Assembly: GCA_012516855.1 (NCBI GenBank)
Contig: JAAYWB010000057.1
Span: 1-64,000, forward strand
Origin: Candidatus Cloacimonadota bacterium
GTDB lineage: Bacteria; Cloacimonadota; Cloacimonadia; Cloacimonadales; Cloacimonadaceae
DNA: 64,000 bases
Direction: 5' to 3'
Both the position numbers and the translations under genes were made by a program. The notes below the pieces were generated by a model, which saw nothing but the letters and a program-made list of their open reading frames with translations, was not told where the DNA came from and ran no database searches. Positions 759-41,366 of the stretch are shown here, piece after piece. How positions within the stretch are numbered: the first letter of the stretch is position 1; each line of letters starts with the position of its first letter.

Positions 759-1453
759 GTTACACTCCTTTGGTATTATCTTACTGACCAAGGCTAAAAG
801 CCATAAATGGCAATCTCTCTGTTGAAAAGGTTGTTAAAATGATATCCATTCTCTCAGTAGGACGGATTGTATCAAAGCCATTCATCGGCAGAGGCCAAAT
901 TTCTTAATTGATACTGGGAAAGATTGGATTCCTCAGTAACTTAAAGGTATCTGAATATTCCACGCCAGTGATTCCACGCAGCCCAACTAACAGCAAAACA
1001 AAAATCCAGTCGCTAAAACTATACCTTTCATACCAAGCTCCCTTTTACTGGAGTTATCGCCAGTTTGGCAAGCCAAACCCATATCCATCAATGGCTCAGC
1101 AATATGTTCCTTTTAAGACTTGCACTGAAATTCACTTATTCGCCAATAATATAATATGTCAAGAAGATTTTTCGGTTGTGGCAAAATCCGAGCGCCATTT
1201 CCCGTCATTCCGGCACTGGGGCAGGTTTCCAGTCCCATTGGTGCTTAGCCCTCTGAGACCCCCTCCCCATACGCCTCCCGGAGGATGGCCGCATTTGATA
1301 CGGGGATTGTGCGGGAGGCGAACTACCTGCGTTGCTTAAAGGGCTAAGGTGGCATCCGGTTTCCGCAGGGAAAATCCTTTCCGGATTGGCGGGCAGGATT
1401 TTTATTGACTTCATGGCTTGGCGAGAAATCAATGCTCCGAACAAAGGTGAACG
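759..1453. other. Intergenic region between divergent genes
   Basis: This 695-bp gap holds no convincing gene. It carries one degenerate copy of the family-1 palindromic repeat (core 1272-1320). On the minus strand a ribosome-binding-like GGGAG precedes an ATG at 1031 that opens a hydrophobic 14-codon reading frame ending in TAG at 987-989; this may be the remnant of a lipoprotein gene. The plus-strand open frame at 908-1339 has no family resemblance and overlaps the repeat. Confidence 0.5.
1272..1320. repeat. Family-1 palindromic repeat, copy A (degenerate)
   Basis: A 49-bp core bounded by perfect 9-bp inverted arms CGCCTCCCG and CGGGAGGCG, with the family's central GCATTTGAT. The inner stem is largely degenerate. 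The left flank (GCTTAGCCCTCTG, then a C-rich run) resembles the left flank of the copy at 41060. The core length equals that of copies C and E. Confidence 0.7.
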
Positions 1454-1987
1454 ATGAAAAAGCTGTATGTTATAATGATTCTGGCCCTTGCCGCCGTCGG
1501 CCTCTGCGCCCAGGAAGGGCTGTTTGGCCTTGCCTACGGCGACGATCTGAACTTCGCGGATTCGCTGATGGTGCAGCAGGGCTTCATCGCCCGCGAGGTG
1601 ATCAGCAGTTGGGTGATTTATACCTCCGATTACAATCCCCTGATCGATTTCGTGGTGCTCTACGTTGATCCCGCCACGGAAATCCTGAGGGGATGGAGCG
1701 TTGTTTACAACGCCGAAAACACACAGGAACAGGATGGTTACGTGCTCGACATGATGCATAAGATGCACGGGGAGAACGTGTTGGTGAATGAGGCCAGGGA
1801 GACGGTAAGCTGGATTTTCGACGAAAACCTGGCCGCCAGCTATTCCTATTCACCGCAGGGGAACCTTCGCGTTATGTATTACGATTTTTCCTGCCCGGAA
1901 CTGTTCGCTCTGCCCGGCACCGAGAAAGAGCCAGAGCCCTCTGAACCGGCGGAACCGGATGTGGAGGAAAAAAACCAGGCCCGCTGA
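1454..1987 (+). CDS. Secreted protein of unknown function
   Basis: A 177-residue protein with a typical signal peptide (MKKLYVIMILALAAVGLCAQ, cleavage probably after residue 19). The mature part has no motif I recognise; it is acidic and mixed alpha/beta in character. The last 25 residues are rich in Glu and Pro and probably disordered. AGGTGA lies before the ATG. It stands alone: the next gene, kdd, has its own ribosome-binding site 130 bp downstream. A periplasmic or surface location is inferred from the signal peptide only. Confidence 0.75.
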   Translation: MKKLYVIMILALAAVGLCAQEGLFGLAYGDDLNFADSLMVQQGFIAREVISSWVIYTSDYNPLIDFVVLYVDPATEILRGWSVVYNAENTQEQDGYVLDMMHKMHGENVLVNEARETVSWIFDENLAASYSYSPQGNLRVMYYDFSCPELFALPGTEKEPEPSEPAEPDVEEKNQAR

Positions 1988-2119
1988 CTTGGAGCCAATT
2001 CATCCAGGCAGGCTTAGGGCATCCCATAGTGCTTGACAAATCCTGCCAGCCTGAAAAGCTGACTTACTCGATAAAGAATAATTAACAAAATAGATATCAG
2101 TATCTTAGAGGAGTTGAAT

Positions 2120-3181
2120 ATGAAAACCGGCGGCTGCCGTTTCGGCACACACAGGGTTATCGAACCCAAGGGCGTACTGCCCCAACCTGCCAGAGTTTTG
2201 AACAATGACATGAGCGAGATCTGGGATAATGAACTGCTCATCGACGTGATCCGCCTCAATGTGGATTCCGCCTCTTTCCACCAGATCAAGAACAAACTTA
2301 TCGCCCAGGGACACACAGACCTGGAAAAAGCCTTCGCGGACCACGCTATCGATTTGGTTAACCGCACGGGCAAGCACAAAAACGAGGACACCGGCTCCGG
2401 CGGAATGCTAATCGGCCGGGTGGCGCAGATCGGCCCCAAGTTTGAGATGAAAGACGAAATCGCCGTAGGCGACACCATCGCCAGCATGGTCTCGCTTTCG
2501 CTGACGCCGCTGAAAATCAACAAGGTCAAGCGGGTGCTGCTGGACAAGGACCAGGTGGAAATCGAAGGCCAGGCAATCCTCTTCAGCAGCGGCATCTATG
2601 CCAAACTGCCGGACGACATGGACGAAAACCTGGCCCTGTCGGTTCTGGACGTTGCGGGCGCTCCAGCCCAAGTGGAACGTTTGGCCAGGCCCGGCGACAC
2701 GGTGGTTGTCCTGGGCGCCAACGGCAAGAGCGGAATACTCTGCAACGCCATTGCCCGCGAGCGGGTTGGCGTTTCCGGAAAAGTGATCGGCATCGTGCGC
2801 AATCCAGCCTACATCGAAACCTGCAAAAACACCGGCTGCCACGAGGTTATCCTCGCCAGCGCCACCGACGCCATCACCATCCAGAAAGAAGTGGCACGCC
2901 TCACCAATGGCCGGATGGCCGACGTGGTGATAAACGTGGTAAACATCGAAGGCACGGAACTGCCCTCCATCATGGCTTGCAGGGAACGCGGTCTGGTCTA
3001 TTTCTTTTCCATGGCCACATCTTTCACCAAAGCCGCCCTCGGCGCTGAAGGCATCGGCGCTGACGTGGATATGATTCTCGGCAACGGTTACGCGCGCCAC
3101 CATGCCGCCATCTCCCTCGATCTGCTGCGCCGGAACCCTGTGCTGATGAAGCTTTTCCAGGAAAGATACACTGACAAGTGA
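2120..3181 (+). CDS. kdd: L-erythro-3,5-diaminohexanoate dehydrogenase
   Basis: Cytoplasmic enzyme (EC 1.4.1.11) of the anaerobic lysine-fermentation pathway; it oxidatively deaminates 3,5-diaminohexanoate to 5-amino-3-oxohexanoate with reduction of NAD. The start GCRFGTHRVIEPKGVLPQPA is typical of the family, and a Rossmann-type dinucleotide motif follows at VVVLGANGKSG. Start choice: GAGGAG at 2108-2113 lies six bases before ATG 2120, so this ATG is preferred to the in-frame TTG at 2114. The product is 353 residues. kamA follows after 8 bp, which supports the assignment because both act in lysine degradation. A TTGACA hexamer lies at 2033 but no good -10 element was found. Confidence 0.93.
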   Translation: MKTGGCRFGTHRVIEPKGVLPQPARVLNNDMSEIWDNELLIDVIRLNVDSASFHQIKNKLIAQGHTDLEKAFADHAIDLVNRTGKHKNEDTGSGGMLIGRVAQIGPKFEMKDEIAVGDTIASMVSLSLTPLKINKVKRVLLDKDQVEIEGQAILFSSGIYAKLPDDMDENLALSVLDVAGAPAQVERLARPGDTVVVLGANGKSGILCNAIARERVGVSGKVIGIVRNPAYIETCKNTGCHEVILASATDAITIQKEVARLTNGRMADVVINVVNIEGTELPSIMACRERGLVYFFSMATSFTKAALGAEGIGADVDMILGNGYARHHAAISLDLLRRNPVLMKLFQERYTDK

Positions 3182-3189
3182 GGTGCTGA

Positions 3190-4437
3190 ATGGCAGAACT
3201 GACAGACATCCGCAGCATTGCCACCGAACAGGAATGGAACGACTGGCGCTGGCAAATCCGCAACCGCATCACCGATTTTGAGACCCTTAAAAAATACATA
3301 GAGCTTCAGCCGGAGGAAGAGGCCGTCGCCAGCTCCGATAGTTTTTCTTTCCGCATGGCGATCACGCCTTATTACCTTAGCCTGATCGATCACAAAAACC
3401 CCAACGATCCTGTGCGCCTGCAAGCCATACCCCGCATCGCGGAAAGCGTTACCGGTCCTTCCGATATGGCCGATCCCCTGAACGAGGATGCCGACGCGCC
3501 TGTGCCAGGCATGACCCACCGCTATCCGGACCGCGTGCTGCTGCTGCTCACGGACCAGTGCTCAATGTACTGCCGCCACTGCACCAGACGCCGCAAAGCC
3601 GGGGAGTATGACGCCCCCATGCCGAAGGAAAATGTGGACAAGGCCATCAAGTACATTGAAGAGCACAAGGAAGTTCGCGACGTTATCCTCTCCGGAGGCG
3701 ATCCCCTCACCATGAGCGACGCCCGTATCGATGAGGTTTTGGTTCGTCTGGCCAAAATCGACCACGTTGATATCGTCCGCATCGGCACCAGAACCCCTGT
3801 GGTGATGCCGCAGAGGATCACCGACGAACTGATAACCGTGCTGAAAAAGTACAAGTTCGTCTGGCTGAACACCCATTTCAACCATCCCCATGAGGTAACC
3901 CCGGATTCCGCTGCCGCCCTAGCCAAACTGGCGGAAGCGGGTGTGTTGCTTGGCAACCAATCCGTGTTGCTAAAAGGCGTGAACGACCACGTGGATGTGA
4001 TGAAATCCCTGGTGCACGCCCTGGTGCGCAACCGCGTGAGGCCTTATTACATCTATCAGTGCGACCTTTCTGAAGGCATTTCCCATTTCCGCACCCCGAT
4101 TTCCAAAGGCATCGAAATCATTGAATCCCTGCGCGGGCACACCTCCGGACTTTGCATTCCCACTTTCGTTGTGGATGCCCCCGGCGGCGGCGGAAAGATC
4201 CCCGTGATGCCCAATTATATTATCTCCCAGATGCCAGGACGCGTTGTGCTGCGCAACTATGAAGGCTTCATCTCCGCCTACACGGAACCGGAATTCGCGC
4301 CCCAGGACGAAAGCAAATACCAGTCCCGCTGCGCGCCTGAACGCCAGTCCATAGAGGGCGTGATGACCCTGCTGCGGGGCAAAAAGGTGTCCATAGGGCC
4401 GGCAGACACCCGCCGCAACCAACGCCGCACCAAATAA
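3190..4437 (+). CDS. kamA: Lysine 2,3-aminomutase (radical SAM, PLP)
   Basis: Interconverts L-lysine and L-beta-lysine, the first step of lysine fermentation. The 415-residue protein carries the radical-SAM cluster motif CSMYCRHC with Cys124, Cys128 and Cys131. The PLP lysine is Lys336 in PGGGGKIPV, and the substrate-binding aspartates are Asp292 (YQCDLSEG) and Asp329 (VVDAPGG). Each is offset by one from the well-studied Clostridium enzyme. SGGDPL at 168-173 is also typical. A GAGGTG ribosome-binding site overlaps the end of kdd. The gene is the second in a four-gene run kdd-kamA-P-loop-CDF. Confidence 0.96.
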   Translation: MAELTDIRSIATEQEWNDWRWQIRNRITDFETLKKYIELQPEEEAVASSDSFSFRMAITPYYLSLIDHKNPNDPVRLQAIPRIAESVTGPSDMADPLNEDADAPVPGMTHRYPDRVLLLLTDQCSMYCRHCTRRRKAGEYDAPMPKENVDKAIKYIEEHKEVRDVILSGGDPLTMSDARIDEVLVRLAKIDHVDIVRIGTRTPVVMPQRITDELITVLKKYKFVWLNTHFNHPHEVTPDSAAALAKLAEAGVLLGNQSVLLKGVNDHVDVMKSLVHALVRNRVRPYYIYQCDLSEGISHFRTPISKGIEIIESLRGHTSGLCIPTFVVDAPGGGGKIPVMPNYIISQMPGRVVLRNYEGFISAYTEPEFAPQDESKYQSRCAPERQSIEGVMTLLRGKKVSIGPADTRRNQRRTK

Positions 4438-4450
4438 CCGGCGCCAAAAG

Positions 4451-5482
4451 ATGAAACACGGAGCGCGGCCCGGACCCTTTGACTGGATCCAGGCCGCGGA
4501 ACCGCGCGCTGTGGCCATCGTCGGCATTTGCAAAAACGCCGGGAAGACCACCCTGCTCAATCACCTTCTATCCCTGCGCAAAAAAGGAGTATGGGGTGTT
4601 TTCAGCACCGGGATCGACGGAGAGGAACGCGACAGCGTTTTCCGGGTGCCCAAACCCGCGGTCAAACTGGAACCGGACACAGTATTCTGTTGCGACACTG
4701 CCAATCTGGACGCTTTGGGCAGCGGTGTCAAAGTGCTGGAAAAAGTCCGGGGCAGTTCTGCGGCCCGTCCTTTGTGGCTGGCGCGCAGCCTGGTGCACCT
4801 GCAAACTGAGATCACCAGCCCCGGTTCAGTATCCGAGCAAATTTCCGTGCTGCAGGCTATGAGGGAACAGGGAGCGGAAAAAGTGCTGATCGACGGTTCG
4901 CTGGACCGCAAATCGATAGCCCTGTCTGAAGCTGTCGATGCCGTCGCCGTGGTGATCGGCGCCAGCTTTGGCAGCGTGTCTTCCGTCATCACTGAAATCA
5001 GGCGTCTGGAATTTCTCAATTCTCTTCCTGAGGCGAAGCTCGGACAACAGGAATTTGCAAAGTTGCTCGGTTCGGAGCAAATCCTTCTGAAAAAAGACGG
5101 ATGCTGGACTGGAAGCGACCTGCATTCCCTGCTGGGAAATGAGAAGGAACTGAAAAAGCTGTTGGAACAGGGTCATGAAGCCATTTACATCCCCGGGGCG
5201 TTGACTGATGCCGGGTTTCCTGCTTTGCGGGAACCTTTGGCAGCGCTGAAGGCAAACATCATTTTCCGCCATCCGGAGTGCCTAAAACTGGGGCTGACAC
5301 GCTTGGAACGCTTGGTTGAGGAGCTTCAACCGCGAGTGCTGATTCCCTTCCGAATCCGGTCCTGGACAGTGAACACGGCTTCCGTTGGCAATGTGGCTGT
5401 CGATGCAGCGGACTTTCGTGCCCGGCTGCGAGAGGCTTTTCCGCAGCTTGACCTGCCTGATATAAGGGAGCTAACGTCATGA
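4451..5482 (+). CDS. P-loop NTPase of the lysine-fermentation locus, KamB-like
   Basis: A 343-residue cytoplasmic protein with a Walker A motif GICKNAGKTT at residues 25-34. It follows kamA by 13 bp and overlaps the next gene by 4 bp. In known lysine-fermentation clusters a P-loop protein (KamB) is encoded next to kamA and is thought, with the MutS-like KamC, to help reactivate the B12-dependent lysine 5,6-aminomutase KamDE. Size, P-loop and position fit KamB, but I recognise no KamB-specific motif beyond that. No kamC, kamD or kamE is present in the window. Alternative: another small GTPase-like protein that happens to be in the operon. Confidence 0.6.
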   Translation: MKHGARPGPFDWIQAAEPRAVAIVGICKNAGKTTLLNHLLSLRKKGVWGVFSTGIDGEERDSVFRVPKPAVKLEPDTVFCCDTANLDALGSGVKVLEKVRGSSAARPLWLARSLVHLQTEITSPGSVSEQISVLQAMREQGAEKVLIDGSLDRKSIALSEAVDAVAVVIGASFGSVSSVITEIRRLEFLNSLPEAKLGQQEFAKLLGSEQILLKKDGCWTGSDLHSLLGNEKELKKLLEQGHEAIYIPGALTDAGFPALREPLAALKANIIFRHPECLKLGLTRLERLVEELQPRVLIPFRIRSWTVNTASVGNVAVDAADFRARLREAFPQLDLPDIRELTS

Positions 5483-6378
5483 GCGACAGAGACAAGATCA
5501 CCAACCGCACTGTCAATTTTGGCCTGTTCACAAACGTGGTCCTGGCTGTGCTGAAATCCCTGATCGGTATTATTGGCCATTCGCAGGCCCTCTTGGCTGA
5601 TGGCATAAACTCCACATCAGATGTGGTTTACTACGTGGCGGTGAAGATTTTCATGCGTCAGGCCAACAAACCTGCCGATCCTGAACATCCCTACGGGCAC
5701 CGCCAGTTGGAAAGCATTTCAGCCATCGTGGTAGGCGCGTTCATCATCACCACTGGCATTGCCATCTTCTTTGAATCCATCAACAAGGTTTACGACCTGG
5801 CCACCACCGCTTCCAGAGCGCCAAGCTCACTGTGGGTGCTGGTGATAGCCGCTGCCACCCTGCTGACCAAGATCTATCTGCTCGCCTTCACCCGCGTAAA
5901 CTACAGCAAGACAGGCAACCCCACCCTCAAAGCCCTGGCTAACGACCATCTGAACGACATCATGGCTTCCGGGGCCGTGATCGTTGGCGTGGTCGCCGCC
6001 CGTCTGGGACTGCCCTGGATGGACCCGGCAGCCGGTGCCATCGTCGCGCTGTTCATCTTCAAAACCGGGGTGAGCATCCTCATGGAATCGTCGGCTGAAC
6101 TGATGGACGCCGTTCCGGACAAGGATTTCGGCGATACCGTCAGAAAGATAGCGCTTTCCGTGGAGGGCGTGCGCTGCATCGAAGATATGGGCGTGCACCG
6201 TTTTGGCCCCTTTTTCACCATCGAAATGACCATCTGTGTGGATGGCTCCATCACCGTGGAAGAAGGCAATGCCATTGCCCACCGGGTGGAGGAAAAACTG
6301 CTGGAGAGCTATGAAGGCGGCCTGCGCCGGGTGATGATCCATTTCCATCCGGAAACGCAACACTCTCACTTTGAGTGA
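5479..6378 (+). CDS. Cation diffusion facilitator (CDF) family transporter
   Basis: A 299-residue inner-membrane protein, probably exporting Zn, Fe, Mn or a similar divalent metal by proton exchange. LLADGINSTSDVV in TM2 and HPYGHRQLESI in the following loop are CDF hallmarks, and NDHLNDIMAS in TM5 supplies the expected His and Asp of the metal site. A cytoplasmic C-terminal domain follows (VEGVRCIEDMGVHRFG ... GLRRVMIHFHPE). The start overlaps the preceding stop as ATGA. Metal specificity cannot be read from the sequence. Why an efflux pump is coupled to the lysine genes is unclear. Confidence 0.9.
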   Translation: MSDRDKITNRTVNFGLFTNVVLAVLKSLIGIIGHSQALLADGINSTSDVVYYVAVKIFMRQANKPADPEHPYGHRQLESISAIVVGAFIITTGIAIFFESINKVYDLATTASRAPSSLWVLVIAAATLLTKIYLLAFTRVNYSKTGNPTLKALANDHLNDIMASGAVIVGVVAARLGLPWMDPAAGAIVALFIFKTGVSILMESSAELMDAVPDKDFGDTVRKIALSVEGVRCIEDMGVHRFGPFFTIEMTICVDGSITVEEGNAIAHRVEEKLLESYEGGLRRVMIHFHPETQHSHFE

Positions 6379-6552
6379 CATACCTCTCTTTCCCATGTCC
6401 GCGAGCTTTTCCCGCTGACCCGTCCTAAGAATCCACCCGCATAAAGGAACTCTCTTTCAAGCCAGGCAGATAAAGACCAACAGACAGCTTTTTATTTGAG
6501 CGTCCGCACCAACTTGTTTGTTAATAGAGTTGTATCTGTTTACCCACCGCAA

Positions 6553-6697
6553 TATCCTGCCAGTTCGGTCCTGAACGCTTGAGTCCACCCCTCTCTCACG
6601 CCCCGCGCATGATTCTCGCATCAAATGCGGGTATCGTGCGGGAGGCGTGTCTGGAACACAAACAAGGGCCTTAACAGCCTGACGGCATCGCTTCTCC
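6553..6697 (+). repeat. Family-1 palindromic repeat, copy B
   Basis: About 145 bp aligning over its whole length with the copies at 41060 (same strand) and 11505 (opposite strand). The core at 6598-6648 is a near-perfect palindrome with arms ACGCC and GGCGT and the shared centre CTCGCATCAAATGCGGGTAT. Left flank: GGTCCTGAACGCTTGAG, then CCCCTCTCTC. Right flank: GGGCCTTAACAGCC, then GGCATCGCTTC. Noncoding. Confidence 0.85.
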
Positions 6698-6822
6698 CAA
6701 GTCACTTACCCCCCCCGCTATTGTATTCAGACCCAAAGCCTTACCCATCCGATTTGAAAGAGGGACAAACTCTTCTTGCCGTCGCTCATGTTGACGCTTC
6801 CATAAATCCGATCCATGAAAAA

Positions 6823-6854
6823 GGGACCAAGAGCCATTTCTGGCCGTTGGTCCC
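6823..6854 (-). terminator. Rho-independent terminator of the parvulin gene
   Basis: On the minus strand GGGACCAA pairs with TTGGTCCC (8 bp), with an inner GGCCA/TGGCT pairing, followed directly by TTTTT. It sits about 50 bp after the stop codon at 6907. A second GC-rich hairpin without a T run (CGCCCCA/TGGGGCG, 6874-6893) lies between the stop and this terminator. Confidence 0.85.
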
Positions 6855-6906
6855 TATAATGTCTTCAGCCGACCGCCCCAATTGGCTGGGGCGAAGCGTT
6901 CGAGCT

Positions 6907-8679: not shown

Positions 8680-8853
8680 CTGATCTCCTGAAATATCTAT
8701 TGCCTTGTATATACCATTATTAGTGTCTGTTCCCTGTAAATTTGGCTCTCCGGATTACGTCAACCGAAAAATCCATTTCTGCCGCTGGCCTTTATGCGCT
8801 TCGCGAGCAAAAGATAACGCAGGAATCCCTTTGGAATGGGGTATAAAAAGCAG

Positions 8854-8882
8854 TTGACAAATATCCTTGTCGGCTTTATCTG
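8854..8882 (+). promoter_or_regulatory. Candidate sigma-70-type promoter for the L,D-transpeptidase operon
   Basis: TTGACA at 8854-8859, a 17-bp spacer, then TATCTG at 8877-8882. It lies 57 bp before the TTG start at 8939. Prediction from consensus only. Confidence 0.55.
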
Positions 8883-8938
8883 ACCCTATCAGATTAGGAG
8901 ATCGGGCCTGTAACTAATTCCGAGTATGAGAGGTTAAA

Positions 8939-11382: not shown

Positions 11383-11898
11383 CGCAACCTGACAGACTCT
11401 AATTACCATCCATCCAGTTCAATCAGACCATTTGGCTTTCTTTCAAATCTAGTAGCTGAAACTCAGTGTCTTACAACCCAGTAGGCGACAGAAATCAATC
11501 CCCTCGCAGGAGTGAAGCGATGCCTGCTGGCCGTTAAGGCCTTGTCCTGTGTATCAGGTGCGCCTCCCGTATAATACCCGCATTTGATGCGAGTATTTTG
11601 CAAGAGGCGTGAGAGAGGGACGGGCTCAAGCGCTCAGGGCCTGACTGACAGGACCTTATATCGGGTTAACATTTCTAACTCTCTTTTATACCGATTGGCT
11701 GCGGTTACTCAAACAGAAAGCGGTCCGGAGGGCGTTTCCCGTCCGATTTTATAGAGAGCCAAATGGAAAGATAGAACAAGTGATGGAGGAGAAATGAGGC
11801 CCAACTCCTTTTTGAGGCAAGGACATGCCAGAATCAGCTTGACAGCTTAGGCCCGTCCGCTGGTATGAATGTTTTAATAAACGAACCCGAGGTATCCC
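11383..11898. other. Intergenic region with family-1 repeat
   Basis: This 516-bp gap lies between two plus-strand genes. About 150 bp of it (11505-11655) is family-1 repeat copy C. No terminator with a T run was seen after the permease gene and no ABC ATPase remnant was recognised. The rest holds nothing I can name. Confidence 0.5.
11505..11655 (-). repeat. Family-1 palindromic repeat, copy C
   Basis: Inverted relative to copies B and E. The 49-bp core at 11561-11609 folds as CGCCTC/GAGGCG, then AATAC/GTATT, then GCAT-TTG-ATGC. Reading the minus strand, flanks match copy E: GGCCCTGAGCGCTT on one side, AAGGCCTTAACGGCCAG and GCATCGCTTCACTCCT on the other. Outer segments GTCCTG and CAGGAC can also pair. 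Noncoding. Confidence 0.88.
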
Positions 11899-31432: not shown

Positions 31433-31537
31433 TCGCAAAAATCATGGACACCTTACCGGGCGGCAGGGAGGCGGTTTCAGGATGGGGAACCATCCGCGGC
31501 CATCACAGCCTTAACGGTCTATAATCCGGCTTCGTGT

Positions 31538-31575
31538 CGCCTCCCGCAGTATATGCGGGAATCCTTCAAGGGGCG
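31538..31575. repeat. Family-1 palindromic repeat, copy D (shortened)
   Basis: A 38-bp core, 11 bp shorter than the family's 49 bp, from CGCCTCCCGC to GGGGCG with an inner TGCGGGAATCC. The left flank retains GCCTTAACGG. It lies between the gcv promoter and the rnf terminator. The most degenerate of the five copies. Confidence 0.55.
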
Positions 31576-31616
31576 TGCGTCAGGCAAGGCTTCGGGAGTT
31601 AAGGAGGAATAAAGAA

Positions 31617-31639
31617 AAGGCGGGATTCGCTCCCGCCTT
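31617..31639 (-). terminator. Rho-independent terminator of the rnf operon
   Basis: AAGGCGGGA/TCCCGCCTT, a 9-bp perfect GC-rich stem with a five-base loop, followed on the minus strand by TTCTTTATT. It begins 21 bp after the rnfB stop codon. Confidence 0.85.
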
Positions 31640-31660
31640 GAGAAAGGTATCGGCTTGGAA

Positions 31661-32692: not shown

Positions 32693-32702
32693 TTTCCCTT
32701 CC

Positions 32703-34458: not shown

Positions 34459-35564
34459 TTCTTGGACCTCCCGAAGGCTTTGGGATGGGTGAGAATGTCG
34501 ATGAGGGGGGTCATAACATTCATGAACAGAATGGAGTAGGAGACCCCTTCAGGATATCCACCCACCAAACGGATTATCACAGTGAGCAAGCCGCAACCGA
34601 TGGCATAAACCACCCTGCCGTTTTTGGTTATTGGGCTGGTGGTGTAGTCCGTCGCCATGAAGAAAGCGCCCAGCAGCAGTCCGCCGGAGAAAAGGTGAAA
34701 GATCGGCAGGGTAAGCGAATAGCCAGTTCCGGGCAACCCGCCGAACAGGAAAGTGAGCACAAACACCGTCAGCAGGTAGAAGAAGGGGATGCGCCACTCT
34801 ATGATCCTGCGCCAGAGCAGATAAACGGCGCCCAGCAGCAGCGCGAACACCGAAACTTCGCCGATGCAGCCGCCGATTTGGCCCCAGAACAGGTTTTTGA
34901 GGGTGCCGAGGTCGAGCATGCCGTTGAATATCCTGTTGCTGAGGTCCAGGCTGGCATCCCTGGTGGCAGCGAGGGAGTTCACGAATGTGCTGTCGCGCAG
35001 GGTCTGGGCCAGGTTCAGGGGTGTGGCGCCGGTCACGAGTTCATAAGCTTTGCCGGAAACGGCCTGGAGGTTAGGATCGATGATGCGGGGGTCGATGCCG
35101 CTCATGGAGATGGCCGTTCCCGGCTGCTTCCAAGTTTGGATTCCAGTCATCAGCGCGGGCCAGGAAGCCAGCAAAAAGGCGCGTCCCAGCAGAGCCGGGT
35201 TCACCGGGTTGTTGCCCAGTCCGCCAAAGACCTGCTTGCCGATGGCGATGGCGAAAACCGCTCCCACCACGGGCAGCCACCAGGGTGATGAAGGCGAAAT
35301 GTTGTAGGTCAGCAGCATGCCGGTGAGCACTGCCGAACCATCGGAAACCCTGACGGGAACCTTGCGCAGCCACTGGATCAGGGCTTCGGCGCCCACGGCG
35401 GCCGAAATGCCCAGCAGGGTGAGCCAGAGCGAACGCCAGCCCCAGTAGTAAACCGCGAAACCCAGCGCCGGCAGCAAGGCCAGCACCACGTTCCACATCA
35501 CGTTGGGGATGCTGCTGTTGTCATGGAGATGGGGCGCGGGTGAAACTGTATATCTTTCTTTCAT
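34455..35564 (-). CDS. rnfD: Rnf complex subunit RnfD (covalent FMN, ion channel)
   Basis: A 369-residue polytopic membrane protein of the NqrB/RnfD family. SPAPHLHDNSSIPNVMWNVV begins the first helix region, GGLGNNPVNPALLGRAFLLASWP is highly typical, and the FMN-binding Thr lies in ELVTGATPLNLAQ. DYTTSPITKNGRVVYAIGCG and GGYPEGVSYSILFMN follow. It overlaps rnfG by 4 bp; rnfC ends 10 bp upstream. Probably part of the ion-conducting path. Confidence 0.95.
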   Translation of the reverse strand: MKERYTVSPAPHLHDNSSIPNVMWNVVLALLPALGFAVYYWGWRSLWLTLLGISAAVGAEALIQWLRKVPVRVSDGSAVLTGMLLTYNISPSSPWWLPVVGAVFAIAIGKQVFGGLGNNPVNPALLGRAFLLASWPALMTGIQTWKQPGTAISMSGIDPRIIDPNLQAVSGKAYELVTGATPLNLAQTLRDSTFVNSLAATRDASLDLSNRIFNGMLDLGTLKNLFWGQIGGCIGEVSVFALLLGAVYLLWRRIIEWRIPFFYLLTVFVLTFLFGGLPGTGYSLTLPIFHLFSGGLLLGAFFMATDYTTSPITKNGRVVYAIGCGLLTVIIRLVGGYPEGVSYSILFMNVMTPLIDILTHPKAFGRSKK

Positions 35565-35574
35565 GGCATAACCT

Positions 35575-36897
35575 CTATTTCTTGCCGCGCAGGGCTTCCG
35601 CGTGCTGGATCTTGCCGGTGTCTATCCACTGCACCAGGCGGATGTGCGCTGGGCAAACGTAGGCGCAACTTCCGCATTTCATGCAGTCTTCCAGTCCCGC
35701 TTTAAGAGCGAGGTCCAGCGCCCCGGCTTTAACAGCCTGGGCGATCTGGCAGGGCAGCAGGTTCATCGGGCAAACATCCACGCAGCGCGCGCAGCGGAGG
35801 CAATTGCGTTCTTCAAGCGTTTTGCTCTCTTTTTCGCTCATCAGCACAAGGCCGGAGCTGCCTTTGGCCATCGGCGCCGCCAGCGAGGGCAGGGCGAAAC
35901 CCATCATCGGGCCGCCGGAAATGATCTTTCCCGGGTCCGAGCTCACGCCGCCGCAAAACTCCACCAGATCAGAAAAGGAAGTCCCAATCCGGGCTTTGAG
36001 GTTTTTGGGATGCGCCACCACGCTGCCGGTAACGGATATTATCCGCTCCACCAGAGGCTTTTGATAGCGCACCGCCTCATAAATAGCAAAGGCAGTGCCC
36101 ACGTTCTGCACCACCACGCCCACAGCCATTGGCAATCCTCCAACGGGCACTTTTCTGCGCGTCACGGCGTAGATAAGCTGCTTTTCCGCGCCCTGGGGGT
36201 ACTGAAGTTTGAGCGGCACCACCCTAAATCGGCTTTCGGAGGCCATTATCTTTTTCATGGCGGCGATGTCGTCTGGTTTGTTGGCTTCGATACCGATGAT
36301 GCCTTGCTTTGCGCCCAGGACCTTCATCAGGATCTTCAGCCCGTTCACCACTTCCTGCGTTTTTTCCAGCATCAGCCGGTCGTCAGCGGTGAGGTATGGT
36401 TCACACTCCACACCGTTCAGGATAACGGTGTCGATGGGTTTGTCCGTCGGGGGTGAAAGCTTCACTAAGGTGGGGAAGCCTGCTCCGCCCATGCCGCAGA
36501 TTCCGGCGTCGCCGATGCGTTTTTTCATCTCATCGGCAGACAGGTCCAGGAAATTAGGGTCATCAGCAAACTCAATCCAGTTGTCGGTTCCGTCGCCCGT
36601 GATTTCGATGGCCAGGGCCGAAGCGCCCGATGGATGGGGAAAAGTGTCGATCTTGGTAACTTTGCCGCTGATCGAGGCATGCTGGGGAATGGATACGAAT
36701 CCTCCAGCGTCCGCGATCTTCTGCCCTGCTTTCACCTCGTCGCCCACCTTGACGATCGGCACGGAAGGCGCTCCGATGTGCTGGGACATGGGGATAACCA
36801 CCCGCTGGGGCAGGGGCATCTCCTCGATCGGGGCGGAGGCGGAAAAACGCTTGTTATCGTGGGGATGAACTCCCCCGGGAAAGGTCTTTAACCTCAT
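35575..36897 (-). CDS. rnfC: Rnf complex subunit RnfC (NADH site)
   Basis: A 440-residue membrane-associated subunit binding NAD(H) and FMN. It begins with the RnfC barrel sandwich (MRLKTFPGGVHPHDNKRFS), followed by GICGMGGAGFPTLVKL, a glycine-rich nucleotide site, and ILNGVECEPYLTADDRLM. Two ferredoxin-type [4Fe-4S] motifs are at the C terminus: CLRCARCVDVCP and CMKCGSCAYVCP. ATG 36897 is preferred to 36909 because GGGAG lies five bases upstream. First gene of rnfCDGEAB. Confidence 0.95.
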   Translation of the reverse strand: MRLKTFPGGVHPHDNKRFSASAPIEEMPLPQRVVIPMSQHIGAPSVPIVKVGDEVKAGQKIADAGGFVSIPQHASISGKVTKIDTFPHPSGASALAIEITGDGTDNWIEFADDPNFLDLSADEMKKRIGDAGICGMGGAGFPTLVKLSPPTDKPIDTVILNGVECEPYLTADDRLMLEKTQEVVNGLKILMKVLGAKQGIIGIEANKPDDIAAMKKIMASESRFRVVPLKLQYPQGAEKQLIYAVTRRKVPVGGLPMAVGVVVQNVGTAFAIYEAVRYQKPLVERIISVTGSVVAHPKNLKARIGTSFSDLVEFCGGVSSDPGKIISGGPMMGFALPSLAAPMAKGSSGLVLMSEKESKTLEERNCLRCARCVDVCPMNLLPCQIAQAVKAGALDLALKAGLEDCMKCGSCAYVCPAHIRLVQWIDTGKIQHAEALRGKK

Positions 36898-37275
36898 TGA
36901 CGCTCCCATTGCAGCTCAAATCGAGCCAAAACATTTTTGTGTTCCATAAATCTTGTTCAAGGAATTTAGGCAAGCTTTTTTTTCGGGCTGGCTTCTATCA
37001 ATTCATGCTACGTTTCCAAAGCCGAGAAGCTGGAGCCGAGCAAGAAACGAGCATCGACTACAACAATAAATGTAAGCTCAAGAATATCCTGTCTCAAAAC
37101 AGGGATGTGAGTACAAAATAAATCTTGACAGGGAGAGGAACTATGCAAAACTTCGTCAAACGTCAATGTTATGATTAGGAATGTCGCTGAGTGCTGTCCT
37201 GTGCCGCGCCGTTCCAGTCCAGAGCGCGCTTTCTCGCGCAGAACCAACCTATAAACAAAACACAAGGAGCATAGC
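36898..37275. other. Intergenic region between divergent rnfC and secreted-protein operons
   Basis: About 380 bp, locally AT-rich. It should hold two divergent promoters. A TTGACA lies at 37125-37130 on the plus strand but no convincing -10 element follows. No repeat copy, hairpin or gene was recognised. Confidence 0.4.
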
Positions 37276-37686
37276 ATGAACAAGCTGCTGACCCTGTTCG
37301 CGCTTTTCGTTTTGGTAGGGAATTTGTCCGCGTTCATCGCGGAGGGCGAATCCAACATTTTTGAGATCATAGCAACATCGGTGGATGAATCCCTTCTGCC
37401 TCCAGCCACACTGTTCACCGGTATGCAGCCTGCCAGTCCCAATCCCTTCCGCAGCGGTGGGAAAGCCTGTGTGAGCCTTACCGTCAAAGCAGGGGAAACA
37501 GCCACCTGCGGCATCTACAATCTATCCGGGCAGTTAGTGCGCTCCCAGACCTACGCTCCAGGCAACCATAATTTCGTTTGGAACGGACATGACCTCTCAG
37601 GCGAGCCCTGCGCCAGCGGAATCTATCTAATCCGGCTCAAATCCCCCAGCCACAATTCCAGCGCCAAACTGGTGCTGATCAAATGA
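37276..37686 (+). CDS. Small secreted protein consisting almost only of a T9SS/FlgD-type C-terminal domain
   Basis: 136 residues: signal peptide (MNKLLTLFALFVLVGNLSAF), a linker of about 30 residues, then a domain from MQPASPNPFRSGGKACVSLT to the end. That domain has the hallmarks of FlgD-Ig-like or type IX secretion sorting domains: NPF, YNLSGQLVRSQ, FVWNGHDLSGEPCASGIYLI and the terminal KLVLIK. Such domains normally sit at the end of large secreted proteins, as in the protein at 39097. AAGGAG precedes the ATG, and the next gene starts 10 bp after the stop. Function unknown; whether it is a truncated cargo or a genuine small protein cannot be told. Confidence 0.75.
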   Translation: MNKLLTLFALFVLVGNLSAFIAEGESNIFEIIATSVDESLLPPATLFTGMQPASPNPFRSGGKACVSLTVKAGETATCGIYNLSGQLVRSQTYAPGNHNFVWNGHDLSGEPCASGIYLIRLKSPSHNSSAKLVLIK

Positions 37687-37696
37687 GGGAGGCGAA

Positions 37697-39055
37697 ATGA
37701 ACAAGCTCGCGATTTTCATCCTGTTCCTTACAGCCGGCCTGTTATCGGCAGCCCCAGTGCTGACAAACATTACGGCCGGGCAGTTGTACGACCAGGTCCT
37801 GATCAACTACCATCTGGCCCATCCGGACAACTTGCCCTGTGAAATCTCAGTGCAGGTTTCCAATGACGGTGGAGCCAGCTACACCATCTTTCCCACTGCC
37901 CTCAGCGGAGATGTTGGAACCATTTCTACCACGGCCTCTGGCGCCCAGTATCAGATCAACTGGAATTACATTTCTGATGGAGTAGGCAGCGGCAAAAACT
38001 ATCGCGTAAAAGTGATAGCCGATGACGGAGCTGGAGAAGTGGCAGCGCCAGTCTTCAATCCCCCCGCTGGGTCCTACGAAAACGCGCAAAACGTGACCAT
38101 CACCTGCCCCACAAGTGGAGCCACCATCCGCTACACCACAGACGGCAGTGAGCCTGGCTCCGAGTCTGAGATATATTCAACCCCTATCCACATCGACGAG
38201 ACCACCACCCTGAAAGCACAGGGCTTCAAGTCAGGCTGGACTCCCAGCGCGGTGAGCAGCGCGGAATACACCATCGCCCCTTCAAATATGATCTATCTTT
38301 CAGGCGGTTCGTTCACAATGGGCGACACCAGAGGAGAGGGAACCACCGACGAACTTCCCACCCACAGCGTGATTCTAAGTCCTTTCTACATCGGCAAGTA
38401 TGAGGTAACCCAAGGCGAATGGCAAGCAGTGATGGGTTCCAACCCCGCCAGCGGCTACGGGGTGGGAGCCAATTATCCAGTTTACAGCATCTCCTGGTAC
38501 TCCACCCTGAAATTCTGCAACTTGCTCAGCATGGCTGAAGGCCTCACCCCGGTCTATACAATCCTCGACTCCACCAATCCAGCCAACTGGGGCAACGTTC
38601 CCTCCAGCTGGGATGACAACTGGAACGCCGCGGTCTGCGACTGGACCGCCAACGGCTACCGCCTGCCCACAGAGGCAGAATGGGAATATGCCGCCCGCGG
38701 CGGAACTAACAGCCCAGACTATCTCTACGCGGGTTCGGATGATATCAATTCCGTGGCCTGGTATTTATCAAACTCGGCTGAAAACACCCATCCTGTCGGG
38801 ACCAAAGCCCCCAACGGCATCGGCGCTTATGACATGAGCGGCAACGTCTGGGAATGGTGCTGGGACTGGAATGGCGATTACTCTGGCACAGCCCAGACCA
38901 ACCCCACCGGACCTGCCGCCGGGGATACCAGAATCATCCGCAGCGGCTTCTTTCTGAATAGCCCGGCTTGGTGCCGCGTCTCGAAGCGCTACAGCAGTTT
39001 CGTTCACGACCCCGTCTTCTACCTCGGTTTCCGCCTCGCCCGGTCTGGTATGTGA
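37697..39055 (+). CDS. Secreted SUMF1-like protein with chitobiase-type domain
   Basis: A 452-residue exported protein. Signal peptide 1-18, then a beta-rich N-terminal domain (about 20-112), a chitobiase/hexosaminidase C-terminal-type domain (about 115-195, IRYTTDGSEPGS), and a SUMF1 domain (198-452: GGSFTMGDTRGEG, YIGKYEVTQGEWQAVMG, GYRLPTEAEWEYAARGG, YDMSGNVWEWCWDW). The end reads WCRVSKRYSSFVHDPVFYLG, then GFRLAR. Only one of the two active-site-type cysteines of true formylglycine-generating enzymes is evident, so a binding role is more likely than catalysis. It is the paralogue of the partial gene at 1-758. The C-terminal region resembles variable regions of diversity-generating retroelement targets. 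Confidence 0.88.
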   Translation: MNKLAIFILFLTAGLLSAAPVLTNITAGQLYDQVLINYHLAHPDNLPCEISVQVSNDGGASYTIFPTALSGDVGTISTTASGAQYQINWNYISDGVGSGKNYRVKVIADDGAGEVAAPVFNPPAGSYENAQNVTITCPTSGATIRYTTDGSEPGSESEIYSTPIHIDETTTLKAQGFKSGWTPSAVSSAEYTIAPSNMIYLSGGSFTMGDTRGEGTTDELPTHSVILSPFYIGKYEVTQGEWQAVMGSNPASGYGVGANYPVYSISWYSTLKFCNLLSMAEGLTPVYTILDSTNPANWGNVPSSWDDNWNAAVCDWTANGYRLPTEAEWEYAARGGTNSPDYLYAGSDDINSVAWYLSNSAENTHPVGTKAPNGIGAYDMSGNVWEWCWDWNGDYSGTAQTNPTGPAAGDTRIIRSGFFLNSPAWCRVSKRYSSFVHDPVFYLGFRLARSGM

Positions 39056-39096
39056 TATTCCTGTTTTCCCGCTGTTCTGCCTGAAAGGAGGTCCAA

Positions 39097-40992
39097 ATGC
39101 GTAAAACAACCCTGCTTTTCCTGGCTTTGCTGGGGCTGCTGCCAGCTTTGTGTGCACTACCCCGCGAACTGGTGGTGGTGGAGGTTGTCACGGGGACCTG
39201 GTGCCAGTATTGCCCCGGCGCCGCCATGGCCTGCCACGACCTGTTGCAAAACGGGCATCCGGTTGCCGTCATCAAGAACCACACCGGCGACGCCTTCACC
39301 AACCAGTATTCCGAGGCCCGCAACAACTTTTACAACCCCACCGGAGTCCCCACAGCCTGGTTTGACGGCCTGAACCCAAGTTCCGGAGGCAGCGCCACCC
39401 AATCCCTCTACACCACATACCTGCCCAGGGTGACAGCCCGGCTGGGCGTGCCTTCCCACTTCACGATCAGTGCCCAGGGCACTCAGGAGGGACCCCAAGT
39501 CCATTTGTCCGTGACGGTTACCAAGCCGGAGACGGACAGCAATACAAACGTGAAGCTGCACGCCGTCCTCACAGAATCCAACATCGCTTTCCCCTGGCAA
39601 AACCAGACAACGCTGGAAAACGTCAACCGGCTCATGTTGCCGGATCAGAACGGAACAGACATCAACCTCAGCACCGGAGGCTCCACCACCATCAACCTCA
39701 GCTTCACCCCGAATCCAGCCTGGCAACTGGCCAATTGCGAGATGATCTTCTTCTTGCAGAACATGAATTCCAAGGAAATCCTCCAGGCAGTGAAGTACCC
39801 CCTGGCTGACCTGGCGGGCTACTATCCGCTTTCCACCAACACCCTGGACTTTCCGGACACCTACCTTTCCGGAGCGGCCACCCTTCCGCTGACGATCACG
39901 AACTACCTTGACACCCCGGTTTCCGGCACAATCACCAGCGACAATCCGGTCTTTACCTGCAGCGTGACGAACTTCAGCATCCCCGGTTCTTCATCCCTCA
40001 CTGCCACCGTTACTTTCACCCCCGCCGCAGTTCAAACCTACGCAGGGAACCTCACCGTCAGCAGTAACCTCCACAACCACCCAAACCTCAGCGTTACACT
40101 TTCCGGGACTGGATATTCCAACCTGGCCCCGACTGTTGAAAACCTCCAGGTCACGGGGCCACCGGTTCTGTATCAACAGCAGTTTGCCAGCTATGATTTC
40201 ATCGACGCGGACGGTGATGCCGAAGGCAACACCGCTTATCAGTGGTACAGGTTCATAAATGATATTCCCCAGGCCATTGCCAACGCGAACGAGGTGGTTT
40301 ACAGGGCCGTGAATGAAGATTTGGGCTATCCCATAGCCATCCAGGTGACCCCGGTGGACGAAAACGGAATGGCTGGAATGCCGGTAATGAGCCCTCCCAC
40401 CCTTCCCATCGAGGTGCTGCCGCCACCTCAAAACCTGCAGGGGACCTGCATCCCGCCCGACACCGTGCAGCTAAGCTGGGAAACGCCCCAACATTTTGGC
40501 TTAAGAGGCCTGGCAGGCTACCGCATTTACCGTGACAGCAACAGCATCTCCAGCCTCTCAGATCCGGGCATCCTCTCTTTCAGCGACACCGGGGTTTCCC
40601 TCGGCACCCATGAATACTGGGTCCGCTCGGTCTTTGACGATCCCCCGATGCTTTCCGGCCCGTCCAACACTGTCTCCGTGATGGTCAGCGTGGCCACAGA
40701 CGACCAGCTGGCCCCCGTGGAAGTTGGGGTGAGGGTTTCCCCAAATCCCTTCCACGGCGGCACCGGGATAAGCATCAAAAGCGAAGCCGGGGCCAGAGTG
40801 GAATTTGCCATTTACAACATCCGCGGCCAGTTGGTGAAAAACGTGAACCTCACCGCGGACAATGCAGGAAAGGCAGGCTTCACCTGGGACGGAACTGATG
40901 CCCAAGGCAGCCCTGTGAACAGCGGTGTTTACCAATACCGGATGTCCAGCGCCGGCAGGTTCAGGACCGGCCGCGTCGTCCTTATCAGGTAA
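39097..40992 (+). CDS. Secreted Omp28/thioredoxin-like multidomain protein with sorting-type C terminus
   Basis: 631 residues. Signal peptide MRKTTLLFLALLGLLPALCA, then a thioredoxin-fold Omp28-like domain with a CxxC site at Cys36 and Cys39 (TGTWCQYCPGA) and the cis-Pro-type NPTGVPTAWFDG. An Omp28-like beta domain follows to about residue 235, then an ASPMA/choice-of-anchor-like domain (LDFPDTYLSGAATLPLTITN), one or two fibronectin-like domains (VQLSWETPQHFGLRGLAGYR) and a FlgD/T9SS-type terminal domain (VSPNPFHGG ... GRVVLIR). AAGGAGGT precedes the ATG. Third gene of a probable operon of secreted proteins. Cell-surface or outer-membrane location is inferred. Confidence 0.85.
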   Translation: MRKTTLLFLALLGLLPALCALPRELVVVEVVTGTWCQYCPGAAMACHDLLQNGHPVAVIKNHTGDAFTNQYSEARNNFYNPTGVPTAWFDGLNPSSGGSATQSLYTTYLPRVTARLGVPSHFTISAQGTQEGPQVHLSVTVTKPETDSNTNVKLHAVLTESNIAFPWQNQTTLENVNRLMLPDQNGTDINLSTGGSTTINLSFTPNPAWQLANCEMIFFLQNMNSKEILQAVKYPLADLAGYYPLSTNTLDFPDTYLSGAATLPLTITNYLDTPVSGTITSDNPVFTCSVTNFSIPGSSSLTATVTFTPAAVQTYAGNLTVSSNLHNHPNLSVTLSGTGYSNLAPTVENLQVTGPPVLYQQQFASYDFIDADGDAEGNTAYQWYRFINDIPQAIANANEVVYRAVNEDLGYPIAIQVTPVDENGMAGMPVMSPPTLPIEVLPPPQNLQGTCIPPDTVQLSWETPQHFGLRGLAGYRIYRDSNSISSLSDPGILSFSDTGVSLGTHEYWVRSVFDDPPMLSGPSNTVSVMVSVATDDQLAPVEVGVRVSPNPFHGGTGISIKSEAGARVEFAIYNIRGQLVKNVNLTADNAGKAGFTWDGTDAQGSPVNSGVYQYRMSSAGRFRTGRVVLIR

Positions 40993-41366
40993 GTCTTGCG
41001 GGCCGCTTTCTGATTGAGCACCCACTTGATTCTTTAGATAGAAATGTTTAGCCGCCAAGAGGCCCTGCCTGTCAGGTCCTGAGCGCTTTCAACCAGCCCT
41101 CTCCCCCGCCTCCCGCAAGATACTCGCATCAAATGCGGGCATTATGCGGGAGGCGTATTAGATCCACTGGACAGGGCCTTAACGGCCAGACCGCCTCGCT
41201 TCATTCCTCCAAAGGGTCACTAACCAATACACAGTCCCACCATCGTGTTCAGCATCCCGGGTAAAACCACCTGATTTGTATGAGAACCGAACGATTTTCC
41301 CTTGACATTTTCCTGCCCTGATTGCCTTTGGCATTTTGAGAAGAAAACCATTGAAAAGGAGAAAAG
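40993..41366. other. Intergenic region with family-1 repeat
   Basis: A 374-bp gap between two plus-strand genes. About 150 bp (41060-41210) is family-1 repeat copy E, the best-preserved core. A TTGACA at 41302-41307 lies 60 bp before the next gene, without a good -10 element. Nothing else was recognised. Confidence 0.5.
41060..41210 (+). repeat. Family-1 palindromic repeat, copy E (best core)
   Basis: The 49-bp core at 41107-41155 has perfect 11-bp arms CGCCTCCCGCA and TGCGGGAGGCG and an inner CGCAT/ATGCG stem around CAA. The left flank GGCCCTG can pair with CAGGGCC in the right flank, enclosing the core in a larger stem. Right flank: GGGCCTTAACGGCCAG, CCTCGCTTCATTCCTCC. Same orientation as copy B, inverted to copy C. 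Noncoding. Confidence 0.88.

What the first reader, a model, noticed from the sequence alone, without database searches (positions are those of the whole stretch)
1272..41210. Five-copy dispersed palindromic element (family 1) in intergenic regions
A shared core occurs at 1272-1320, 6598-6648, 11561-11609, 31538-31575 and 41107-41155, always outside genes and in both orientations. Three copies have a 49-bp core (A, C, E), one has 51 bp (B) and one 38 bp (D). Consensus arms are CGCCTCCCGCA and TGCGGGAGGCG around CTCGCATCAAATGCGGGTAT. Sequence differs between copies but the hairpin is kept, which suggests a structured, multicopy element such as a REP/BIME-like sequence, a MITE or an RNA element. 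I recognise no named family.
Basis: seen in the sequence. Interest (0 to 1): 0.7.

Follow-up and report, generated by a model that had tools for sequence, protein, structure and literature searches.

The report
Evenly spaced chromosomal iteron palindromes
The five copies are part of a large family of long DNA palindromes built from 11-letter repeats that sit between genes about every 10,000 letters along the chromosome of this uncultured bacterium, a spacing far too even for chance, which suggests that they mark or organise the chromosome rather than being ordinary repeat clutter.

Summary
The repeat is real but larger than described. Cores B, C and E lie in a 152-nt element (type A; 122 strong copies in the 2.25-Mb draft genome; 106 of 110 read are exactly 152 nt). 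A and D are diverged relatives. Two further window sites (48055, 63401) belong to a related symmetric type S (119 nt), whose arms are arrays of ~11-nt iterons. All 44 members in six contig stretches are intergenic. The surprise is spacing: counting A and S together, 108 neighbour intervals average 10.0 kb and none is below 4.4 kb (about 41 expected; fewest in 20,000 simulations 22); three tight A-S pairs were counted as single sites. Another Cloacimonadota genus (G029) has different iteron sequences in the same architecture, 21 of 21 intergenic and at least 10.1 kb apart. Type A arms do not co-vary, copies show no recent duplication, seven positions are shared with a sister species, and no REP transposase was found. 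Best reading: dispersed protein-binding landmarks (supercoil-domain or segregation sites), occasionally spread by a MITE. Spacing and architecture are shown; binding protein and function are inferred. REP/BIME and RNA readings are not supported.

The parts
   Evidence: R1 40.1 bits; nhmmer 40.0 bits, intergenic
   Evidence: R1 165.2 bits; the gap of the orthologous gene pair lacks it in G001, G002, G003, G010, G012
6448..6766 (-). 319-bp unit around B with imperfect inverted ends GGCTCTCTTTCAAA-like (MITE-like carrier)
   Evidence: one end also (6753-6766)
   Evidence: R1 160.4 bits
11434..11760 (+). 327-bp unit around C with inverted ends
   Evidence: 11434-11447 + and 11747-11760 -
   Evidence: nhmmer 28.5 bits, E 2.6e-7, intergenic; not in the R1 list
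   Evidence: R1 156 bits; after the orthologous upstream gene G002 has a type S element (L175, one flank aligned)
48055..48173 (.). type S element, 119 nt, symmetric 11-nt iterons
   Evidence: R2 109.1 bits; S element in the orthologous gap of G002 (L226)
63401..63519 (.). type S element, 119 nt
   Evidence: R2 104.3 bits; aligned across to an S element in G002 (L238)

Best explanation
These are dispersed chromosomal landmark sites. Each is a palindrome of about 119-152 bp whose arms are (clearly in S and in the G029 families, weakly in A) arrays of ~11-bp iterons, so that a DNA-binding protein could load as a dyad-symmetric array, one subunit per helical turn. The sites are kept between genes at roughly 10-kb intervals (minimum about 4.4 kb), so that each stretch of chromosome of supercoil-domain size has one. 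I think they seed nucleoprotein complexes that organise the chromosome (bound supercoil domains, anchor topoisomerase/SMC activity, or assist segregation). New copies appear occasionally: type A seems to have been carried by a MITE with GGCTCTCTTTCAAA ends, and only copies that respect the spacing persist. Shown: intergenic location, near-constant length, 11-nt periodicity in four families (S; G029 I, II, III), even spacing across families of different sequence in two genera, shared positions between sister species, no recent copying. Inferred: a binding protein, the chromosome-organising role, and selection as the cause of the spacing.
For: Spacing, own genome: 178 sites (A and S together, three tight A-S pairs counted as one site each), 108 intervals, mean 10.0 kb, CV 0.40, 0 below 4.4 kb versus mean 40.8 and minimum 22 in 20,000 uniform simulations. 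Against a null of real intergenic gaps on six stretches (424 kb): 37 intervals, CV 0.35 versus mean 0.83 (minimum 0.54), 1 below 5 kb versus 14.4 (minimum 8). The two types respect each other: smallest A-S interval 4.73 kb apart from the tight pairs. Second genus (G029, 400 kb): an agnostic dyad scan finds 22 palindromes, best lag 11 nt in 19; three iteron families, 21 sites, 21 intergenic, minimum 10.1 kb, reached in 0 of 20,000 draws at each of three gap cut-offs. Near-constant length: 106 of 110 A copies 152 nt, 35 of 37 S copies 119 nt. 11-nt iterons: consensus lag match 0.61 (S), 0.66 (III), 0.50 (II). No covariation in A: positions are conserved one by one, as for binding sites. No recent copies: 105 A copies, best pair 86%. 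Positions kept: in the 7 of 39 G002 loci for which the own sequence in hand covers both flanks, the own genome has an element in the same gap, once of the other type.
Against: No protein, binding or expression data. Locus B has no element in five relatives, and one G002 S locus (L229, one flank aligned) has none in the own genome, so single sites are dispensable. G002 is sparser and less regular: 44 intervals, mean 21 kb, CV 0.65, 1 below 4.4 kb versus 5.7 expected. In G029 the CV (0.63) is only moderately low (3-4% of draws as low). Three A-S pairs lie within 600 bp in the own genome, one in G002. Type A shows only weak 11-nt periodicity (lag 11 ties with lag 13). S does exceed most shuffles on the covariation score (6 of 500 reach it). 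The offset of GG from the dyad axis is not the same in all families, and several iteron families in one genome would need either a tolerant protein or several.
Confidence: 0.45

Rival explanations
1. Non-autonomous mobile elements (MITEs) whose transposition system has target immunity: a new copy cannot insert within about 4-5 kb of an existing one, so even spacing is a by-product and the element has no host function.
For: Type A lies in units with inverted ends in 14 of 109 copies at >=17/26 identity for both ends (33 upstream, 35 downstream); the end motif is enriched 119 versus 9 in the control; locus B has no element in five relatives; strong type A copies occur in two of 13 same-genus genomes.
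Against: Spacing holds between families of different sequence: A and S, and I, II, III in G029, which immunity of one transposon would not give. No pair of 105 A copies exceeds 86% identity, so no burst; copies at ~70% mean identity but nearly all of one length do not look like decaying relics. Most A copies lack recognisable ends.
Confidence: 0.25
2. Structured RNA element acting in transcripts (3'-end stabiliser, terminator or sRNA).
For: Long hairpins are predicted for either strand of the A consensus; A copies lie nearer gene ends than starts and more often in convergent than divergent gaps (23 versus 11 of 77 with both neighbours); in S 1 of 500 shuffles reaches the paired percentage and 6 of 500 the covariation score; G.T cells outnumber A.C cells in the A dyad read on one strand (258 versus 196).
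Against: No covariation in A, and in S the number of pairs with a double change does not exceed shuffles (427 of 500 at least as high); 22 versus 21 orientation in tandem gaps; 8 of 39 element-bearing gaps are divergent; no T-run after the core hairpin in 105 A copies; in G029 family III the iteron spacers of the two arms are mostly not complementary; no Rfam match at gathering score in the window.
Confidence: 0.12
3. REP/BIME-type repeats made by a RAYT tyrosine transposase.
For: Extragenic palindromes in many copies; sister genomes have Y1 transposases.
Against: The own genome, with 122 strong A copies, has no PF01797 hit (draft of 98.8% completeness); length 119-152 nt and evenly spaced, mostly solitary copies, whereas passages of PMC2817692 describe most REPs in clusters and REPs flanking rayt genes.
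Confidence: 0.03
4. The even spacing is an artefact of detection or of where intergenic gaps lie.
For: Models R1/R2 scored only 150 candidates each; gene maps are my own ORF heuristic; positions of the sites were compiled by hand.
Against: An nhmmer scan of the whole 424 kb gives the same kind of map, and the null drawn from the real gaps is far from the data; the result repeats in G029 with other families found by an agnostic scan.
Confidence: 0.06

Closest known systems
REP / BIME elements (RAYT-associated; PMC2817692, passages seen)
   Same: Extragenic, palindromic, high copy, several sequence types per genome; BIMEs bind gyrase and IHF according to that paper.
   Different: 119-152 nt near-fixed length, 11-nt iterons, mostly solitary and evenly spaced at about 10 kb, no RAYT-type gene found in the genome, no recent copies.
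ERIC/IRU and RU elements of enterobacteria (RU: PMC2759123, search listing only; ERIC recalled)
   Same: ~100-170-bp dispersed intergenic repeats of unclear function.
   Different: I know of no report of even spacing or iteron arms for them (recalled); no sequence comparison was made.
parC centromere of plasmid R1 bound by ParR (PMC9426499, passages seen)
   Same: Arrays of 11-bp iterons; the passages say R1 ParR needs at least two 11-bp repeats and that ParR homologues tested bound only parC of their own family.
   Different: parC repeats are direct, on plasmids, upstream of parM; here arrays are inverted, on the chromosome and in well over 100 places. No ParM/ParR search was made.
Dispersed chromosome-organising sites such as matS, Noc sites, strong gyrase sites (recalled); E. 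coli chromosome in 400-500 supercoiled domains (PMC3820752, abstract in search listing)
   Same: Many protein-binding sites spread along a chromosome; 400-500 domains in E. coli corresponds to about 10 kb each.
   Different: Those sites are short single motifs (recalled); here long iteron palindromes with sequence families that differ between and within genera.
MITEs (general, recalled)
   Same: Part of type A sits in small units with terminal inverted repeats.
   Different: Most A copies show no such ends and type S was not tested for them as a set; no target duplication was established.

Membership tests
REP/BIME (RAYT-made) | RAYT (Y1) transposase in the genome, flanked by the repeats | tested here: not met
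   0 hits to PF01797 in the own genome; 10 of the 13 genomes in the same search have hits
REP/BIME (RAYT-made) | short palindrome, mostly in clusters or alternating arrays | tested here: not met
   119/152 nt; no second strong copy found in flanks of up to 1.5 kb of 110 A copies; none of 108 site intervals below 4.4 kb; three tight A-S pairs are the exceptions
REP/BIME (RAYT-made) | extragenic location | tested here: met
   0 of 110 A copies lie inside a predicted gene (small end overlaps not counted); 44 of 44 A+S on six stretches intergenic
MITE | terminal inverted repeats at both ends | tested here: inconclusive
   14 of 109 A copies with both ends at >=17/26; type S not tested as a set
MITE | target site duplication and a transposase acting on the ends | tested here: inconclusive
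   no consistent duplication seen by eye in the 14 two-ended copies; in the listed part of the <=2-mismatch end list I saw no inverted pair 0.7-2.5 kb apart (list truncated)
MITE | presence/absence at orthologous loci | tested here: met
   locus B has no element in G001, G002, G003, G010, G012
Structured RNA family | covarying helix, type A | tested here: not met
   no measure exceeds shuffles
Structured RNA family | covarying helix, type S | tested here: inconclusive
   covariation score reached by 6 of 500 shuffles, double-change cells by 26, pairs with double change by 427
Structured RNA family | match to an Rfam family | tested here: not met
   0 at gathering score over the window; four sub-threshold hits around one S site, none at locus B
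Intrinsic terminator | T-run directly after the hairpin | tested here: not met
   0 of 105 A copies on either strand
parC-like centromere | array of ~11-bp iterons | tested here: met
   consensus lag match peaks at 11 in S, G029 II and III; weak in A
parC-like centromere | adjacent parM/parR genes and ParR binding | not tested
   no ParM/ParR search made; of 20 window proteins scanned, 18 have family hits (several below cut-off) and 2 none
Chromosome-organising binding site | bound by a nucleoid or segregation protein in the cell | not testable with these tools
   needs a DNA-affinity or ChIP-type experiment

The most novel reading that the evidence does not exclude
Cloacimonadota chromosomes carry a new kind of genome-wide ruler: inverted arrays of 11-bp iterons at quasi-regular ~10-15-kb intervals, in which the architecture and spacing are conserved while the iteron sequence turns over between and even within genomes, read by a co-evolving DNA-binding protein system that divides the chromosome into even domains or gives it many centromere-like sites.
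Probability: 0.35. Interest if true: 0.95.

Novelty: new variant of a known kind. Interest (0 to 1): 0.85.

Why it matters
How bacterial chromosomes are cut into roughly 10-kb supercoil domains is usually discussed without fixed sequence boundaries (recalled). A phylum with evenly spaced, sequence-encoded, iteron-built sites would make that question directly testable by binding, supercoil mapping and deletion. It would also show dispersed repeats kept in place by spacing rather than spread as clutter, and it offers a simple genomic signature (dyad plus 11-nt period) to look for in other phyla.

Tried and rejected
RNA reading: RNAalifold and pair counts gave no covariation in A and a mixed result in S. 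REP reading: no Y1 transposase. Recombination-site readings (attC-like core, Tn3-like inner IR because of CGTTAAG/CGCTAAG) were considered from memory and dropped without a test. An autonomous transposon with the GGCTCTCTTTCAAA ends was looked for only in the listed part of the pattern search and, by motif, in 20 fetched stretches; none was recognised, but no protein scan of those stretches was made. A constant GG phase relative to the dyad axis across families was tested and holds only for some of them (6-7 nt in S, I, III; 10-11 in II and L258). Palindromes with a best lag other than 11 exist: 3 of 22 in G029 and 6 of 19 on the six own stretches, 3 of 9 in 20 Cloacimonadota loci, 13 of which had no palindrome at all; outside the phylum 10 palindromes in 60 loci, 1 with best lag 11. 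The gap null with gaps of 300 bp or more could not be run, there being too few such gaps on a contig. A hit of 10.7 bits at C16:10229, 3.1 kb from its neighbour, was below my 18-bit threshold and left out. The first protein scan of genome contigs found no relative. Literature: ten searches; in the listings I saw no report of these repeats in Cloacimonadota, but I opened only two papers (passages), the listings show a part of the hits, searches returned none, and most subscription papers are not in the library.
Full report
WHAT WAS CHECKED. Whole-genome blastn with copy B showed that the similarity extends well beyond the ~50-bp core. Aligning 31 copies in one orientation gave a 152-nt element (type A). 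A model of it (R1) finds 122 copies of 91 bits or more in the 2.25-Mb, 138-contig draft (counted; a lower bound, since 150 of 719 candidates were scored). Of 110 copies read with flanks, 106 are exactly 152 nt, and information drops sharply at the 5' edge and fades within about 20-30 nt past the 3' edge. B, C and E are such copies; A is a weak match and D only a remote relative.

A SECOND TYPE. Weak R1 matches, aligned on their own, define a symmetric relative (type S): a 119-nt palindrome of the form CCTTWGCCCC..TTCCC..CGCCTCC..CGCCTCCCGC..ACTTCCCGCC / mirrored. Window places 48055-48173 and 63401-63519 are type S. Of 37 own S copies of 60 bits or more not cut by a contig end, 35 are exactly 119 nt. 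The dyad sum of the S alignment has its side maxima 11 and 22 columns from the main one, and the consensus arms match themselves best at a lag of 11 nt (0.61; the other lags from 5 to 16 are at or below 0.42): the arms are iteron arrays, roughly GGGARGYNNNN repeated. In type A the periodicity is weak (lag 11 ties with lag 13).

DISTRIBUTION. Type A: own genome and the sister species G002 (14 copies above 116 bits), only weak matches in G010, G006 and G004, none in the other 8 same-genus genomes or the 8 same-order genomes of that search. Type S (R2, both strands counted, stricter filters): 9 of 13 same-genus genomes including the own one (G000, G001, G002, G004, G005, G006, G008, G010, G012), 4 of 12 genomes of other genera of the family with 1-7 matches, 0 of 16 in other families of the order. 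The 20 most similar records of a protein scan are all titled Cloacimonadota/Cloacimonetes or Ca.

SPACING. On six stretches read completely (424 kb: C59, C16, C58, C71, C22 and the window), 44 A+S elements of 18 bits or more are all intergenic. Leaving out one S copy whose centre lies 294 bp from that of an A copy, 37 neighbour intervals average 10.1 kb, CV 0.35, minimum 4968 bp, 1 below 5 kb. Drawing the same numbers of sites from the real intergenic gaps (40 bp or more, 1500 draws) gives CV 0.83 (minimum 0.54) and 14.4 intervals below 5 kb (minimum 8); cut-offs of 100, 150 and 200 bp give the same picture. Genome-wide, 122 A and 59 S or weak sites give 109 intervals after merging three A-S pairs closer than 600 bp: mean 10.0 kb, CV 0.40, minimum 4434 bp; A-S neighbours keep the distance as well (57 intervals, minimum 4730 bp). 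On contigs of known length, 108 intervals: 0 below 4.4 kb, against 40.8 expected under uniform placement and a minimum of 22 in 20,000 simulations. Type A alone: 2 of 63 intervals below 4.4 kb, against 19-20 expected. G002 agrees weakly: 44 intervals, mean 21 kb, CV 0.65, 1 below 4.4 kb against 5.7 expected.

AN INDEPENDENT GENUS. Some Cloacimonadota contigs fetched by protein similarity carry palindromes of the same build with other iterons, for example ATCAATACGGG in L247 and TATCCAGTCGG in L258. Scanning blindly for dyads and then asking which lag (7-15) fits best: in 20 Cloacimonadota loci, 9 palindromes, best lag 11 in 6, 13 loci without any; in 60 loci of other phyla, 10 palindromes, best lag 11 in 1, weakly. 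In 400 kb of G029 (a single 2,246,820-bp contig, the length I recall for Ca. Cloacimonas acidaminovorans) the blind scan finds 22 palindromes, 19 with best lag 11, and a shuffled copy gives 3; on the six own stretches it finds 19, 13 with best lag 11. By eye the G029 palindromes fall in three families of different sequence (TTCCCATATCA, CATTGCTTACC, GTAACAACTCC); the first shares GGGAAG with S, and R2 finds one weak match in G029. HMMs of the three give 21 sites, all intergenic, interleaved by family, 10.1 kb or more apart, the smallest interval being between two families. In 20,000 draws from intergenic gaps none reaches that minimum (largest 8.4, 9.6 and 7.8 kb for three gap cut-offs). The CV (0.63) is less extreme, about 3-4% of draws being as low, because of a few long gaps. 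Family III alone, 47 places (weak ones included) on the whole chromosome, is anti-clustered (1 interval below 8 kb against 7.1; p 0.0024) and, among 41 genomes, is found in G029 and weakly in G005.

WHAT IS CONSERVED, AND HOW. In type A the paired columns do not co-vary beyond shuffles. In S the result is mixed: 1 of 500 shuffles reaches the paired percentage and 6 the covariation score, but 427 reach the number of pairs with a double change. In S conservation and pairing are highest at three phases of the 11-nt period. In G029 family III the GTAAC cores are dyad-symmetric while the spacers are mostly not complementary between the arms. This is what a dyad array of binding sites would look like and is not typical of an RNA helix. 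Orientation of A to tandem genes is even (22 versus 21), convergent gaps exceed divergent ones (23 versus 11; 33 of 110 copies had a neighbour outside the stretch), and A lies nearer to gene ends than to starts. No A copy of 105 is followed by a T-run.

HISTORY. 105 A copies are 70% identical on average, the closest pair 86%: no recent burst. Of 39 G002 loci compared with the own sequence in hand (about a third of the genome), 7 match on both sides of the element, and in all 7 the own genome has an element in the same gap: three S-S, three A-A and one G002 S-like against own A (L244 versus L006). Four of the seven (L226, L238, L240, L152) come from stretches not chosen around own A copies. With one flank only, the types differ at window E (G002 S, own A) and at L159 (G002 A, own S), while L229 has no own counterpart. 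Orthologous A cores of equal length are 68-77% identical (three pairs; no closer than to many paralogues; a further pair, L155/L086, differs by one nucleotide in length); in L152/L115, L155/L086 and L159/L123 the intergenic sequence beside the core aligns poorly and with gaps. Against strict permanence, locus B is empty in five relatives. In 14 of 109 A copies both ends of a 289-437-bp unit with inverted GGCTCTCTTTCAAA-like ends are visible; the end motif is enriched 119 to 9 in the genome and also bounds much smaller elements. In G002 such an end lies directly beside an S element whose own-genome counterpart lacks it. I read this as a separate MITE that once carried a variant of the palindrome (type A) and spread it.

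INTERPRETATION. Even spacing that holds between families of different sequence in one genome (A and S; I, II and III) is hard to explain by immunity of a single transposon and suggests a shared function that needs about one site per domain. PMC3820752 (abstract in search listing) puts the E. coli chromosome at 400-500 supercoiled domains, about 10 kb each. The closest molecular analogy I can document is ParR on the 11-bp iterons of R1 parC (PMC9426499, passages); for gyrase and IHF on BIMEs see PMC2817692 (passages). Neither is a membership claim. The tight A-S pairs (three here, one in G002) are so close that they act as one site in the spacing; the own S partners score 51-64 bits against about 100 for the best S copies, which would fit decay of a redundant copy, though other solitary S copies score as low.

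LIMITS. The genome is a draft; gene maps are my own ORF heuristic; weak sites depend on a score threshold; site lists were compiled by hand; the collection searches score a limited number of candidates; the binding protein, the effect on the chromosome and the cause of the spacing are not shown.

Noticed in passing
own genome, e.g. G000:C15:32157-32201 (L189), G000:C58 (L186), window 6448-6766 and 11434-11760: Inverted-repeat elements of 45 to ~330 bp with GGCTCTCTTTCAAA-like ends, sometimes beside terminator-like hairpins or poly-T/poly-A runs; 119 end motifs versus 9 in the control; no transposase recognised.
   Followed up: partly
L014, L018, L023, L028, L030 (flanks of A copies): Another dispersed repeat, CCTGTCGTCCATGCTCACTGCGTTCGCTGTACGCCAGG-like, next to several A copies.
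   Followed up: no
L006, L021 (flanks of A copies): Repeat GCCCCTTGCGGGCGTCAGAAATCAACTCCGCGGTTCTGTCGCCCTCCGGGC-like in intergenic regions.
   Followed up: no
window, right part of the gap 6379-6906 (locus B): A GGGACC...GGTCCC hairpin is kept in the orthologous gap of G002 and G012 although the rest of the gap differs.
   Followed up: no
genomes G000-G008 and G013-G016: Y1 (IS200/RAYT-type) transposases are present in 10 of 13 genomes searched, including siblings, but not in the own genome.
   Followed up: no
G000 contigs C10, C20, C22; G002 contig C5: Tight A-S pairs (start to start 264-439 bp), the exceptions to the spacing rule; possible replacement intermediates.
   Followed up: partly
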